Source: Bacillota bacterium
Lineage (GTDB): Bacteria; Bacillota; Clostridia; Oscillospirales; Feifaniaceae
DNA length: 34,806 nucleotides
Direction: 5' to 3'
NCBI GenBank assembly: GCA_030705925.1
Contig: JAUZPM010000021.1
Location: 1 to 34,806, forward strand
Shown here: piece by piece, positions 4,454-13,903 of the stretch
Layout: each line of letters begins with the position of its first letter
Numbering within the stretch: position 1 is the first letter of the stretch
Notes under the pieces: model-generated
The model's database searches: none
What the model saw: the letters and a program-made list of their open reading frames with translations, nothing else
What the model was told of the DNA's origin: nothing
Program-made: the position numbers and the translations under genes

Positions 4454-5137
4454 TTGTTTATATATATAGACGAATCGGGCAGTATGGCGTCCGAAATCAA
4501 CAATATAAATGAAAGATATTTCGTTATTTCCTTACTGCTTGTAAACGACCCCGAGACGCTGAGGAAGGTTTACATAAGGTATGTAAAAAAGAATATGTTC
4601 ACGCTGAAAAACACCGATCGGGAGAATAAGATGTTTTTGGGGGACAAGTTCCTTGAGCTCAAGGGTCATTCATTCACGCCAGAAATGAAGAAAGACTTTA
4701 TAGATTTCTTTTGCAGGAACGGGCATTTCAAGCTTTTTCCTATTATCATCGACGGCGCAAAGGTCGGGCATAACTTTTACAAAGACAAGGCAAGGGCTTT
4801 CAATTTCGCACTGTCGCAGGCGTTGGCGGCTCTGCATGACATGAAGGTGTTGACAGACAGGACGTGGTATCTCAATATCGACGAACGGAACGTGAAATCG
4901 GTTTTGAAGTATGAACTTGAAGAATTTCTGATGACAGGGCTTTCGACAAGCAGGGACATCGCTGACGACATCTCTGTCACATACTTCGATTCCAAAAACA
5001 ACAAGCTAATCCAGATAGCCGACGTGTTCTCAAACATATTTTACTCGAACATCATAACCGGCGGCCACTACAGCGAAGAGATCCGGCATATGCAGGCGGG
5101 CGGGTATATCGTCGGGTTTTTTCATCTGCCCCTTTGA
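4454..5137 (+). CDS. DUF3800 domain-containing protein
   Basis: The protein opens with the DUF3800 signature LFIYIDESGSM; a first conserved Asp in YIDESG and a later DVFSNIFYSN segment match the family. Function is unproven; family members are often found near mobile or RNA elements, and a nuclease-like fold has been suggested. The frame is open back to an ATG at 4388, but that start would lie on the promoter. The TTG at 4454 has a perfect GGAGG (4441-4445) 8 bases upstream and gives 227 residues beginning at the conserved motif, so it is chosen. The stop is followed after 3 bases by the first iron-type operator of the feo operon. Confidence 0.82.
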   Translation: MFIYIDESGSMASEINNINERYFVISLLLVNDPETLRKVYIRYVKKNMFTLKNTDRENKMFLGDKFLELKGHSFTPEMKKDFIDFFCRNGHFKLFPIIIDGAKVGHNFYKDKARAFNFALSQALAALHDMKVLTDRTWYLNIDERNVKSVLKYELEEFLMTGLSTSRDIADDISVTYFDSKNNKLIQIADVFSNIFYSNIITGGHYSEEIRHMQAGGYIVGFFHLPL

Positions 5138-5140
5138 AGA

Positions 5141-5158
5141 TGTTAGGCTAAACTAACA
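5141..5158. promoter_or_regulatory. Distal DtxR/IdeR-like operator upstream of feoAB
   Basis: A perfect inverted repeat TGTTAG-N6-CTAACA, containing the TTAG...CTAA core typical of DtxR-family metal-dependent repressors. An almost identical copy lies 166 bp downstream (5307-5324). Its position ahead of feoAB supports iron- or manganese-responsive control; the regulator itself is not in the window. Confidence 0.7.
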
Positions 5159-5306: not shown

Positions 5307-5324
5307 TGTTAGACTTAACTAACA
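5307..5324. promoter_or_regulatory. Proximal DtxR/IdeR-like operator upstream of feoAB
   Basis: Second perfect TGTTAG-N6-CTAACA dyad, 50 bp before the feoA-like start. With the distal copy it could act by roadblock or looping repression when iron is plentiful. The half-sites are identical in both copies; only the central six bases differ. Confidence 0.75.
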
Positions 5325-5374: not shown

Positions 5375-5713
5375 ATGATGTCCTTAATATTCTGGAGGCC
5401 GCGAAATGCAGGCAGGAATATTCCGGAGAGTAAGACGCAAAACCAAAAAAGCAATTCGAAAGACGCAAAAATAAACATTTCACAGCTAAGCAACGGAGAG
5501 TCAGCGGAAGTGGTCGAGCTTTACCACAACAACAAGATAATAAGAAAGCTTGAGGCGATGGGCATAGTCCCCGGGGTGGTCATCACCAAAAAAAGTTCCA
5601 TCTTTGCAAAAGGCCCCGTTATCGTTGAAAAGGGTTCCGTGCAGTTTGCGGTCGGATATGACACGGCGCAGAAAATCATTGTGAGGCCCCTCGATTTGGG
5701 AGGCTATCAATGA
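5375..5713 (+). CDS. feoA: FeoA-domain protein with N-terminal extension
   Basis: 112 residues. Residues ~35-108 form the SH3-like FeoA domain: NISQLSNGESAEVVEL, then LEAMGIVPGVVITK and a beta-rich VQFAVGYDTAQKIIVRPL end. The first ~34 residues are a polar, Lys/Ser/Gln-rich extension not usual for FeoA, which is normally about 75 residues. FeoA is a small cytoplasmic partner of the FeoB ferrous iron transporter. The start has GGAGG (5364-5368) 6 bases upstream; the ATG at 5378 is an equally close alternative. The stop overlaps the feoB start as ATGA, so translation is probably coupled. Two iron-type operators precede the gene. Confidence 0.85.
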   Translation: MMSLIFWRPRNAGRNIPESKTQNQKSNSKDAKINISQLSNGESAEVVELYHNNKIIRKLEAMGIVPGVVITKKSSIFAKGPVIVEKGSVQFAVGYDTAQKIIVRPLDLGGYQ

Positions 5714-7422
5714 AGAAAATCGTTCTTATCGGAAACCCAAACGTCGGAAAGAGCCTGCTGTTTTCACGCATAACCCGGATAGGGATGCTTACCGCTAACT
5801 ATTCGGGAACAACGGTTGAGACAGAGTCGGGAAACTTTGATTATAACGAGAGAAAATATGAGATAATCGACGGGCCGGGGATATATTCGCTTGAGAACTT
5901 TTCAAAAACAGATCAGATCGCCCTCCAGCTTATCGACGAGGGAGATATAATAATAAATGTACTGGATTCGACGAATCTTGAGCGCAACTTAAGCCTCACG
6001 CTTCAGCTCATCAAAAAGCGCAAACCGATGATCGTTTGCCTCAACTTCTGGGAGGATACGATACATAAGGGCATCACGATAGACGCGGCAAAGCTTTCAA
6101 AGCTTCTTGACGTTCCGGTCGTCACCGTCAGCGCCCTGCGCAGTGAGGGCATATCCGAGCTTATCGCCGCAATAGAAAGGGCGAAAGTCAGCGGCGTCGA
6201 GGTTGAGCCGGACAAACTTTGGAATTATATCGGAGACATCGTTAGCTCGGTTCAGCAGCTTCATCACCGGCACCATACGCTGCTTGAACGCATAAGCGAT
6301 TTTACCCTGCATCCGGTCGGCGGCATAACGACCGCCGTCGTCATCCTGTTCACGACGCTTGTGATCGTGAGGTTCATGGGCGAAAGCATAATAAATTATC
6401 TGTTTGACCCGTTTTACACAAAAATATACGACCCCTTCATCCAGGGCATCGTCGGAAAGATACCATACGGCGTGATACGAGAGCTTCTTGTCGGCACGTC
6501 GGCAGACCCGCTTCAGTCCTTCGGGATACTTACAAGCGGCGTCTATATCGCTCTTGTGCAGGTTTTCCCTTATTTCTTTTCCTTCTATTTCATTTTCGGA
6601 TTTTTAGAGGATTTCGGATACCTTCCGCGCCTTGCCGTTGTGCTGGATCGGTTTTTCCACAAGCTCGGGCTGCACGGTTATTCCTCTATCCCAGTTATGC
6701 TGGGGCTTGGCTGTAAAGTGCCGGCATTCATGGCGACAAGGGGGCTTACCAACCGCCGTGAGAAGCTTCTCACCATAACGCTTATTTTTATGAGCGTGCC
6801 CTGCCTGTCGCAAAGCGCAATGATCGTTTCGCTTGGTATGCGCTATGGCGTTTTGACTGTCGCCGCTATCTACGGCATACTGATAGCCCTTGCGCTTTTG
6901 ATGAACTTTGCAATGAACAAGCTGTATAAAAAGGGCGACTCGCCGGAGTTTTTCACCGAGTTTCCCGCCGTGAGAATCCCGTCGGCTAGCCTGCTTGCAA
7001 AAAAGCTTTGGATCAGGATAGCGGAATATTTTAAAGAGGTCCTGCCGATGATCGCTATCGGCGTGCTTTTAATGAATATCCTGAATGCCATCCACGTCCT
7101 GAGCTTCCTTACCGATCTGATAAGGTATCCTGTACAAGTGCTGATGGGGCTTCCGCCTGAGATCGCGCCGGTCATGTTCATGAACTTTTTAAGGAAAGAC
7201 GCCTCGGTTGCGCTTCTTGTGCCGCTTAACCTTAACGCATATCAGTTCATCATCGCCTGCATATTCCTTGTGCTGTCAATGCCCTGCATCGCTTCGCTTT
7301 TCACGCTGATTCGTGAGCTTGGGGCAAAAACAGCCTTGAAAATAATGGGGCTGATATTTTCCGTCACCGTTGTGGTTTCGTCACTGCTGCATTTTGTATT
7401 TTCGGCGCTGAATCTGTCATGA
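5710..7422 (+). CDS. feoB: Ferrous iron transport protein B (FeoB)
   Basis: 570 residues. The N-terminal G domain shows G1 GNPNVGKS (8-15), the switch I Thr in SGTTVE (34-35), G3 DGPG (54-57) and a G5-like SALRSEG. The G4 motif reads N112-F-W-E115 followed by D116, so the usual Asp of NxxD is Glu. After ~190 residues a membrane region with about eight helices follows, including the conserved GCKVPAFMATRGL gate segment and YLPRLAVVLDRFFHKLGLHG. FeoB moves Fe2+ into the cell with GTPase-dependent gating. It is shorter than E. coli FeoB (773 residues), with a compact spacer and C-terminus, as in many clostridial versions. It is co-transcribed with the feoA-like gene. Confidence 0.93.
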   Translation: MKKIVLIGNPNVGKSLLFSRITRIGMLTANYSGTTVETESGNFDYNERKYEIIDGPGIYSLENFSKTDQIALQLIDEGDIIINVLDSTNLERNLSLTLQLIKKRKPMIVCLNFWEDTIHKGITIDAAKLSKLLDVPVVTVSALRSEGISELIAAIERAKVSGVEVEPDKLWNYIGDIVSSVQQLHHRHHTLLERISDFTLHPVGGITTAVVILFTTLVIVRFMGESIINYLFDPFYTKIYDPFIQGIVGKIPYGVIRELLVGTSADPLQSFGILTSGVYIALVQVFPYFFSFYFIFGFLEDFGYLPRLAVVLDRFFHKLGLHGYSSIPVMLGLGCKVPAFMATRGLTNRREKLLTITLIFMSVPCLSQSAMIVSLGMRYGVLTVAAIYGILIALALLMNFAMNKLYKKGDSPEFFTEFPAVRIPSASLLAKKLWIRIAEYFKEVLPMIAIGVLLMNILNAIHVLSFLTDLIRYPVQVLMGLPPEIAPVMFMNFLRKDASVALLVPLNLNAYQFIIACIFLVLSMPCIASLFTLIRELGAKTALKIMGLIFSVTVVVSSLLHFVFSALNLS

Positions 7423-7461
7423 TTTGAATAACGGGGAAGGCGGGCGAATAACATAATAGTA

Positions 7462-7555
7462 CAGCATCAACAGTAAGTCCTTAAACTGTGCCATGTTCGA
7501 GGTAAGTGCTATTTGATAGCATCACGTTAAGGCGATTGGTGCTGAAAAAATTTTT
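7462..7555 (+). ncRNA. Tandem structured RNA, copy A (unrecognised family)
   Basis: This is the first of two related ~70-nt elements in the feoB 3' intergenic region. P1 is an 8-bp outer stem (7462-7469 with 7537-7544, one G-U). P2 pairs CCTTAA (7479-7484) with TTAAGG (7527-7532). P3 pairs TGCC (7489-7492) with GGTA (7501-7504) around an 8-nt loop. P4 pairs GTG (7506-7508) with CAC (7523-7525), with an inner CTA/TAG. An A6T5 run follows P1, so a weak terminator is possible. A CATAAT at 7452-7457 sits at the same distance from the AACAGTAAGTCCT box as the TATAAT of copy B. I do not recognise it as a known riboswitch. Confidence 0.55.
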
Positions 7556-7564
7556 AAGCAGCTA

Positions 7565-7593
7565 TTGACTGTTAGTTTTGTCGGGTATATAAT
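7565..7593 (+). promoter_or_regulatory. Promoter of the second tandem RNA
   Basis: TTGACT (7565-7570), 17-bp spacer, TATAAT (7588-7593). Predicted initiation near 7600 is only a few bases before the conserved AACAGTAAGTCCT box. No ribosome site or coding frame follows before the terminator, so the product is probably a small RNA. Confidence 0.75.
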
Positions 7594-7599
7594 TTAGGT

Positions 7600-7716
7600 A
7601 AAGTTAACAGTAAGTCCTGAATACATGCCGTTTTCTAGGTAAGTGATATGTGTTGTCACCATGCTCAGGCAATTACTTGCTATTAAAGGCCATCCGCTTG
7701 GAAGGTCTTTTTTATT
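7600..7716 (+). ncRNA. Tandem structured RNA, copy B; probable ~115-nt small RNA
   Basis: This copy repeats AACAGTAAGTCCT (7606-7618), then P2 CCTGA/TCAGG (7616-7620 with 7665-7669), P3 TGCC/GGTA (7626-7629 with 7638-7641, again an 8-nt loop) and P4 GTGA/TCAC (7643-7646 with 7656-7659). Relative to copy A, P2 changes a T-A pair to G-C. This compensatory change supports selection on structure. The strings GGTAAGTG and AGGC are also shared. P1 here is weaker, about 6 bp with a 2-nt bulge. A strong promoter lies immediately upstream and a rho-independent terminator ends the unit. It could be a regulatory small RNA or a ligand-binding RNA. Confidence 0.6.
7685..7713 (+). terminator. Terminator of the tandem RNA unit
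   Basis: AAAGGCCATCC (7685-7695) pairs with GGAAGGTCTTT (7700-7710) with one mismatch and one G-U around a GCTT loop, followed by more T residues. It separates the RNA unit from the downstream UBA/two-component operon. Confidence 0.8.
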
Positions 7717-7771
7717 TTGCTTTTTACAGCGATAAAGGCATTGAAATGAAGATTATAATAATATACAATAA

Positions 7772-7861: not shown

Positions 7862-8398
7862 ATGGCAACATTAGAACAAGTTGAAAAACTTCGTGAAAAA
7901 GCAAACGTAACATATGATGAGGCGAAAGAGGCACTTGACTCAGCAAACGGCGATATGCTCGACGCACTCATATATCTTGAGAAGAAGGGCAAAGTAAGCG
8001 AGCCTGACGGCGGCGGATATTACAGCAGTGAACAGAAGGCGCCGATCATCGAGGTCAAAGCCAGTGGCGATGAAAAAGACTGCGGCGGCGAGAGCTTTGG
8101 CGATCTTATGGGGCGTTTTGGTCGCTTCTGCCTGAAGATACTGCACAAGGGCATGACAAATTCATTCGTTGTTACGAAAAACGGCGAGAGAAAAGCCTCG
8201 GTGCCGGTGATCGTTCCGGTGATAATGCTTCTGTTCATGTTCTGGCTCACTATTCCGCTTTTGATCGTGGGACTCTTCTTTGGTCTGCGCTATCGTTTCG
8301 TAGGACCTGACCTTGAAAAGGAGTCGGTCAACGGCGCAATGGACGCTGTGGCAAACACCGCAGACAAAATCAAAAAATCTATAACTGAAAATAAATAA
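7862..8398 (+). CDS. UBA-like/DUF4342 membrane protein, first gene of the two-component operon
   Basis: 178 residues. Residues 1-45 form a UBA/TS-N-like helical domain (EQVEKLREKANVTYDEAKEA and NGDMLDALIYLEKKGK), as in elongation factor Ts N-termini. After a variable linker, residues ~85-150 match DUF4342: NSFVVTKNGERKASVPV followed by one or two membrane segments (VIMLLFMFWLTIPLLIVGLFF). The C-terminal 30 residues are polar. The site AAGGAGGAATTAGC precedes the ATG. It lies 14 bp ahead of the response regulator gene and shares its upstream 11-bp array with the paralogue at 13403-13903. A role as accessory membrane component or output of the two-component system is inferred from context; the family has no established biochemical function. 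Confidence 0.8.
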   Translation: MATLEQVEKLREKANVTYDEAKEALDSANGDMLDALIYLEKKGKVSEPDGGGYYSSEQKAPIIEVKASGDEKDCGGESFGDLMGRFGRFCLKILHKGMTNSFVVTKNGERKASVPVIVPVIMLLFMFWLTIPLLIVGLFFGLRYRFVGPDLEKESVNGAMDAVANTADKIKKSITENK

Positions 8399-13402: not shown

Positions 13403-13903
13403 ATGACTAATTTAGAACAGGCGGAAAAACTGCGTGAAAAGGTGAACGTGACCTATGATGAGGCTAAGGCGGCATTAGAGGCGACAGGCGGCGACCTTCT
13501 CGAGGCGCTGATCTATCTTGAGAGAAACGGAAAGGTTAGAAAACCGGTTGCCGTTGCAAAAACAGAGAACACGGGTTATTACAGCACTGCGGGCGGCGCA
13601 AACAGTGCAAACAGTGCAAACAGTGCAAACGGCGCAAGCGGCGCAAACAGTGCAAACGGAGCGAATAACTGTGGTCAGGCTTCCGGCACGACCTTCGCGG
13701 ATCTTGTTAAAAGCTTTGCATTTTACTGCAAAAAGATTATCAAGCTTTGTCTAAAAAGCAATTTCGTCGTCTTCAAGGGGGATAGAAAGAGAGCGGAGTT
13801 CCCGACCATCCTGCTGATACTGTTTTCAGTGTTCGCTTTCTGGATCACTATCCCGGTAATGCTTCTCGGCGTCCTCTGCGGGTTTTCCTATCGCTTTATA
13901 TGA
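13403..13903 (+). CDS. Second UBA-like/DUF4342 membrane protein
   Basis: 166 residues, a paralogue of 7862-8398. The UBA-like domain (EQAEKLREKVNVTYDEAKAALEATGGDLLEALIYLERNGKV) is close to the first copy. The linker has expanded into Ala-Asn-Ser/Gly repeats (about residues 65-86). The DUF4342 part (SNFVVFKGDRKRAEFP) and a membrane segment (TILLILFSVFAFWITIPVMLLGVL) follow, and the protein ends at YRFI, without the polar tail of the first copy. The ribosome site is GGAGGAGA. The upstream 11-bp array is shared with the first copy, so both are probably controlled by the nearby two-component system. No kinase or regulator gene accompanies it; the next gene is convergent and the two stops abut in TGATCA. 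Confidence 0.78.
   Translation: MTNLEQAEKLREKVNVTYDEAKAALEATGGDLLEALIYLERNGKVRKPVAVAKTENTGYYSTAGGANSANSANSANGASGANSANGANNCGQASGTTFADLVKSFAFYCKKIIKLCLKSNFVVFKGDRKRAEFPTILLILFSVFAFWITIPVMLLGVLCGFSYRFI
13595..13661 (+). repeat. 9-bp coding repeat (GCAAACAGT type)
   Basis: Seven to eight near-identical 9-bp units, GCA-AAC-AGT or GCA-AAC-GGC, encode Ala-Asn-Ser/Gly triplets in the linker of the second UBA/DUF4342 protein. Units are multiples of three, so slippage would alter linker length without a frameshift. Confidence 0.85.

What the first reader, a model, noticed from the sequence alone, without database searches (positions are those of the whole stretch)
7462..7716. Tandem, possibly undescribed structured RNA downstream of feoB, second copy with its own promoter and terminator
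Two ~70-nt elements 137 bp apart share AACAGTAAGTCCT, an 8-nt-loop TGCC/GGTA hairpin, GGTAAGTG and a closing AGGC. Both fold into the same outline, a closing stem with two internal hairpins, and one P2 pair changes T-A to G-C between copies. Copy B is framed by TTGACT-N17-TATAAT and an intrinsic terminator with no coding frame, so it looks like a true small RNA of about 115 nt. I do not recognise it as a listed riboswitch, but I cannot search Rfam.
Basis: partly seen in the sequence, partly recalled or inferred. Interest (0 to 1): 0.85.

Follow-up and report, generated by a model that had tools for sequence, protein, structure and literature searches.

The report
RNA partner of DUF3800 nuclease-like protein
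Two copies of a small folded RNA, not listed in Rfam, belong with a nearby gene for an RNase H2-like protein of unknown function (DUF3800); the same pair recurs in many bacteria and phages, so it is probably a mobile protein-RNA module, perhaps an RNA-restrained toxin or anti-phage system.

Summary
In detail: two 86-nt structured RNAs (A 7461-7546, B 7598-7683), B with its own promoter and terminator. The link to feoB is mostly coincidence: the partner is the DUF3800 gene at 4454-5137, and feoAB sits between them only in this genome. A sequence pattern found 29 more loci; in 19 the RNA lies beside a DUF3800 gene, and a protein-first search gave 13 of 13. 22 of 25 base pairs show changes on both sides and 95.7% of cells pair. 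No Rfam family matches at threshold; DUF3800-I (RF02969) aligns full-length to B but below cut-off (27.5 against 44.2 bits). Bridging sequences make this a sister class of DUF3800-I with a different 5' part and an outer helix. Divergent versions follow DUF3800 in Streptococcus satellite phages and Listeria phage PSA. The protein is predicted to have an RNase H2 fold with invariant acidic residues. Some genomes keep the RNA without the gene. Best guess: the RNA binds and restrains the protein, as in AbiF/RCd22 or type III antitoxins. The pairing is well supported; the mechanism is inferred. The 2017 paper describing DUF3800 motifs was not readable, so prior description is not excluded.

The parts
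4454..5137 (+). DUF3800 gene (TTG start after GGAGG; 227 aa), the protein partner; predicted RNase H2-like fold
   Evidence: PF12686 E 2.8e-13; 36-54% identical to most DUF3800 proteins found beside the RNA, 26% to the most divergent; model pLDDT 91, RNase H2 Z 11.9
7461..7546 (+). RNA copy A: P1 7462-7470/7537-7545; CAGUAAGU 7471-7478; P2a 7479-7483/7528-7532; P2b 7487-7490/7523-7526; P3 7491-7492/7501-7502; P4 7506-7511/7517-7522. No own promoter seen
   Evidence: R1 85.9 bits (this copy is in the model); pairs counted; promoter scan
7565..7593 (+). Promoter of copy B, TTGACT-N17-TATAAT
   Evidence: Same layout at near-constant distance in almost all single or second copies elsewhere
7598..7683 (+). 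RNA copy B: CAGUAAGU 7608-7615; P2a 7616-7620/7665-7669; P2b 7624-7627/7660-7663; P3 7628-7629/7638-7639; P4 7643-7648/7654-7659; P1 7600-7607/7673-7680 imperfect in this copy
   Evidence: R1 84.2 bits; RF02969 full-length below cut-off
7685..7716 (+). Intrinsic terminator of copy B
   Evidence: Fold; aligned to the terminator of the DUF3800-I model
5375..7422 (+). feoA and feoB lying between the gene and its RNA; in the other loci the gene and RNA are directly adjacent
   Evidence: Pfam; distances

Best explanation
A and B are copies of the RNA component of a two-part DUF3800 protein-RNA module. Shown by sequence: the RNA has a conserved structure, travels with one clade of DUF3800 proteins, is usually driven by its own strong promoter, and shares a core with Rfam DUF3800-I RNAs. 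Inferred: the invariant unpaired CAGUAAGU and UAA segments on the P1/P2/P3/P4 scaffold are bound by the DUF3800 protein, an RNase H2-like nuclease that would harm the cell, or an invading phage, if free. Copy B, made from its own promoter, and copy A, made with the upstream transcript, bind the protein and hold it inactive until RNA supply fails, as in type III toxin-antitoxin or AbiF/RCd22 systems. Pairing with DUF3800: about 0.95. RNA as inhibitor: about 0.5.
For: Adjacency in 19 of 29 pattern-found loci and in 13 of 13 protein-found loci of the clade; divergent RNA just after DUF3800 in phage records; correlated distances (Mantel r 0.72); DUF3800 with this RNA form a clade. RNase H2 fold, invariant acidic residues. 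Own promoter in almost all single or second copies. Close-clade gene never seen without the RNA, RNA seen without the gene; gene inactivated by internal deletion in L016 with both RNAs kept; decayed RNA or promoter in L031, L024, L015. Cargo position between portal and terminase genes or near integrase in phages. AbiF/RCd22: two-motif ~100-nt RNA with its own promoter neutralises a toxic phage protein (PMC12373285).
Against: No experiment on toxicity, binding or cleavage. The RNA usually lies downstream of the gene, unlike type III systems. Gene-less RNAs are few independent events, mostly one MAG clade. In the window feoAB separates gene and RNA. Conservation of unpaired nucleotides would equally suit an activating cofactor.
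Confidence: 0.5

Rival explanations
1. The RNA is a positive cofactor: it forms an active ribonucleoprotein with DUF3800, as a scaffold or guide, and the complex cleaves phage or host nucleic acid.
For: Obligate RNA next to every clade member; nuclease fold; a DUF3800 protein occurs with Cas12a2 systems (PMC10910872).
Against: No long variable unpaired stretch that could serve as a guide; RNA kept in genomes that lost the protein.
Confidence: 0.27
2. The RNA is a cis element or autoregulatory 3'-UTR processing site controlling DUF3800 mRNA, with copy B as a decoy for protein released from the mRNA.
For: Copy A sits just after the DUF3800 stop codon with no promoter of its own in most tandem loci.
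Against: Copy B and single copies have their own promoter and terminator; RNA lies upstream of the gene in L077; in the window A is 2.3 kb away after feoB.
Confidence: 0.1
3. Repeat-like element used in mobility: A and B are ends or recognition sites of a mobile unit and DUF3800 acts on DNA.
For: Different genomic positions in related MAGs; in L023 the gene is flanked by two copies; integrase chains among weaker fold matches.
Against: One locus per genome; RNA-level covariation with promoter and terminator; RNase H2 is the best fold match.
Confidence: 0.05
4. Iron-responsive small RNA or riboswitch of the feo operon.
For: Position after feoB here and, separately, feoB upstream in one gut Clostridia clade.
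Against: Most loci have no feo gene; B has its own terminator and downstream genes differ.
Confidence: 0.03

Closest known systems
DUF3800-I RNA (Rfam RF02969)
   Same: Same core (P2a, 2-3 nt bulge, P2b, P3, UAA linker, P4), terminator, and position beside a DUF3800 gene; one sequence (L095) is matched by both models.
   Different: Scores below the family cut-off; the 5' hairpin is absent, replaced by unpaired CAGUAAGU and an outer helix P1; often two copies; paired with a different DUF3800 clade.
AbiF / RCd22 (Clostridioides difficile prophage; abiF motif RF03085)
   Same: Phage-borne protein with adjacent ~100-nt RNA, SigA-type promoter and terminator, two RNA motifs (PMC12373285).
   Different: Unrelated protein (Abi_2) and RNA; RCd22 lies upstream of its gene; no Rfam match of our RNA to it. 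Function is shown there, only inferred here.
Type III toxin-antitoxin (ToxIN, CptIN, TenpIN)
   Same: Nuclease-fold protein plus repeated structured RNA, often in phage-defence contexts.
   Different: Those have short RNA repeats upstream of a ToxN-fold endoribonuclease; here one or two 86-nt units, usually downstream, with an RNase H2-like protein.

Membership tests
DUF3800-I RNA (RF02969) | Score at or above the curated cut-off (44.2 bits) | tested here: not met
   27.5 bits for B; no locus reaches it at the R1 element
DUF3800-I RNA (RF02969) | P2a-P2b-P3-UAA-P4 core followed by terminator | tested here: met
   Alignment; core pairs covary; bridge L095
DUF3800-I RNA (RF02969) | 5' hairpin before P2 | tested here: not met
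   Model positions 7-28 fall on the -10 box and P1/CAGUAAGU region and fit poorly
DUF3800-associated RNA (broad kind) | RNA adjacent to a DUF3800 gene | tested here: met
   in the window itself separated by feoAB
Type III toxin-antitoxin | RNA tandem repeats directly upstream of a ToxN-fold gene | tested here: not met
   Order and fold: RNase H2-like
Type III toxin-antitoxin | RNA neutralises a toxic protein by binding it | not testable with these tools
   Needs expression and binding assays
AbiF/RCd22 | abiF RNA motif (RF03085) and Abi_2 protein | tested here: not met
   No Rfam match; protein is PF12686
Riboswitch or leader of feo | Constant downstream gene class under cis control | tested here: not met
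   Terminator after B and varied downstream genes

The most novel reading that the evidence does not exclude
DUF3800 proteins and their adjacent structured RNAs, in bacteria, prophages and satellite phages, form a new class of RNA-inhibited toxin or anti-phage systems with an RNase H2-fold effector, unrelated to ToxN or AbiF.
Probability: 0.4. Interest if true: 0.82.

Novelty: new variant of a known kind. Interest (0 to 1): 0.6.

Why it matters
DUF3800-linked RNAs have, as far as I know, been catalogued as motifs without a known role. This gives a clear protein-RNA pairing, a comparative structure, and small versions of the module in known phages (Streptococcus satellite phages, Listeria phage PSA), so the function becomes directly testable. 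If the RNA restrains a nuclease, it is a further independent origin of RNA antitoxins.

Tried and rejected
Rfam at gathering threshold: no match. The own-genome DUF3800-I match on contig 66 is a ZTP riboswitch, and L009 looks like a PyrR leader: both chance; they also show that a score near 27 bits alone proves nothing. The L004 BLAST match from a relative is AT-rich chance (R1 10 bits). L010 in a viral contig is chance coding sequence. The first genome-contig scan with the window protein found nothing. Plasmids: no match for RNA or protein; phages: none for the RNA by blastn. PADLOC: no match for five DUF3800 proteins; NCBIfam: none for the window's DUF3800. No PDB relative by sequence. In the same order only the window's own genome has the RNA (1 of 394), so the module is rare and patchy. 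The founding paper (10.1093/nar/gkx699) is not held.

Full report
Observation. Two copies of a 69-nt element, 74% identical without gaps, lie 137 nt apart after feoB. Copy B has TTGACT-N17-TATAAT upstream and a hairpin plus T-run downstream; with its terminator it folds better than shuffled sequence (z -2.8). No Rfam family is matched at its curated score anywhere in the window. With relaxed settings the whole DUF3800-I model (RF02969, 1-115) aligns to 7588-7719, terminator included, at 27.5 bits against a cut-off of 44.2 (E 0.023). The window also encodes a DUF3800 protein (PF12686, E 2.8e-13), 2.3 kb upstream, with feoA and feoB between.

Relatives. A sequence pattern taken from the two copies matched 26 stretches in genome contigs and 4 in viral contigs, one of which (L010) is chance. 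That leaves 29 loci; L013 and L027 carry the same sequence. A covariance model (R1) finds 48 elements in 30 loci including the window (searched 32 sources, two of them DUF3800-I loci without a match). Many loci have the same tandem A+B layout, and each genome has one locus. In 394 genomes of the same order the RNA occurs only in the window's own. None of the loci reaches any Rfam threshold at this element.

Structure. On the model-fitted alignment A3, 95.7% of cells pair, 22 of 25 pairs have changes on both sides, and the covariation score is 0.645 against 0.207 in shuffles and at most 0.111 when partners are slid. The more diverse A5 gives 0.726. These alignments were fitted to the structure, which favours it, but RNAalifold on the plain MAFFT alignment A1 gave P2b, P3 and P4 on its own. 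Elements: outer P1, unpaired CAGUAAGU, P2a, P2b, P3 with an 8-nt loop, UAA linker, P4 with a UGUGU-like loop. Many unpaired core positions are invariant while most helix pairs vary. A and B lineages are old: A of the window is closer to A of L018 (72%) than to its own B (64%).

Partner gene. Pattern-first: 18 of 29 loci have a DUF3800 homologue beside the RNA on the same strand, 42-280 nt from the pattern match (Pfam checks), and a 19th (L036) has it just outside the fetched stretch. Protein-first: of 17 DUF3800 loci from viral contigs, all 13 of the close clade carry the RNA next to the gene; two of these contigs were already known and several are near-identical. For the four more distant ones a broader model (R2) finds a weaker RNA just downstream (E 3e-5 to 1.5e-4). 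In annotated records of Streptococcus satellite phages (Javan750, 276, 555, 304) and Listeria phage PSA the best R2 match is in every case about 40-90 nt after the DUF3800 stop (E 3e-5 to 0.019). Of the four folded alone, their minimum-energy folds show a similar outline, and Rfam has no convincing match there. The window's gene and its RNA B have largely the same nearest relatives, and protein and RNA similarities correlate over 19 loci (Mantel r 0.72, 0 of 9999 permutations), so the two were probably inherited together although feoAB separates them here.

Relation to DUF3800-I. True DUF3800-I RNAs in the same order (L007, L008) also lie directly beside DUF3800 genes. RF02969 weakly matches R1 elements in three genomes: the window's, G303 and G297. 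R1 and R2 place a core match exactly on the DUF3800-I RNA of L007, but weakly (8.7 and 12.9 bits). L095, next to a divergent DUF3800 gene, is matched by both RF02969 (34.1 bits) and R2 (E 3.6e-4). I conclude that the core is homologous but the class is separate: the 5' hairpin is replaced by CAGUAAGU and P1. The DUF3800 proteins with this RNA form a clade (support 0.95).

Promoters and loss. Single or second copies have TTGAC(A/T)-N17-TATAAT-like promoters at a nearly constant distance; for several AT-rich upstream regions the match is not better than shuffles, so the constancy across loci is the stronger argument. The RNA is found without the gene in 10 loci; in eight of those genomes no DUF3800 of this clade was found at all. 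L016 keeps both RNAs beside a DUF3800 gene with a large internal deletion. Among gene-less loci, L031 has broken pairs in P2a and P4 and has lost the -35, L024 has a broken P4 pair, and L015 looks like a fusion of A and B with P1 broken. These are few events, mostly in one MAG clade.

Protein. AlphaFold2 (pLDDT 91) with top structural matches to RNase H2/HIII (Z 9-12; Foldseek best E 2e-4). D6, E7, E68, D143 and D190 are invariant. DUF3800 was earlier described as an RNase H fold with a rearranged catalytic site and as associated with putative ncRNAs (PMC10910872).

Mechanism. I favour an RNA that binds and restrains a nuclease, by analogy with AbiF/RCd22 (PMC12373285) and type III systems: RNA always beside the gene in the close clade, gene dispensable where the RNA remains, strong promoter, conserved unpaired nucleotides, cargo position in phages. 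This step is inference, and an activating cofactor remains possible. A guide role is less likely because there is no long variable unpaired stretch.

Novelty. DUF3800-linked RNAs are a known kind; this class is not in Rfam 15 at threshold. The 2017 paper that described DUF3800 motifs was not readable, so this may match one of them.

Noticed in passing
window 5142-5157 and 5308-5323: Two copies of GTTAG-N6-CTAAC flank the region before feoA; none expected by chance in the window. Possibly operators of an iron-dependent repressor.
   Followed up: partly
L014, L020, L024, L025, L029, L033: A different feoB gene lies near the same RNA in one clade of gut Clostridia MAGs, so proximity to feoB arose at least twice.
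   Followed up: partly
L016:2600-2880: DUF3800 gene with a large internal deletion (start and end of the protein remain) beside intact RNA copies A and B.
   Followed up: yes
L015:7001-7086: Single RNA that looks like a fusion of an A-type 5' end and a B-type 3' end, with P1 broken.
   Followed up: no
L106, L107, L108, L109 (phage records): Divergent RNAs right after DUF3800 in Streptococcus satellite phages and Listeria phage PSA, unannotated and without a convincing Rfam match.
   Followed up: partly
window 7862-8398 and 13403-13903: Two paralogous proteins with near-identical N-termini and a weak DUF4342 match (first one).
   Followed up: no
window 5710-7422: This FeoB has no close homologue in seven other genomes of the family (best 31-42% over parts), which suggests feoAB was acquired from elsewhere.
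   Followed up: no
L003:87-166 (own genome, contig 66): A ZMP/ZTP riboswitch (63 bits), found because it weakly matched the DUF3800-I model.
   Followed up: yes
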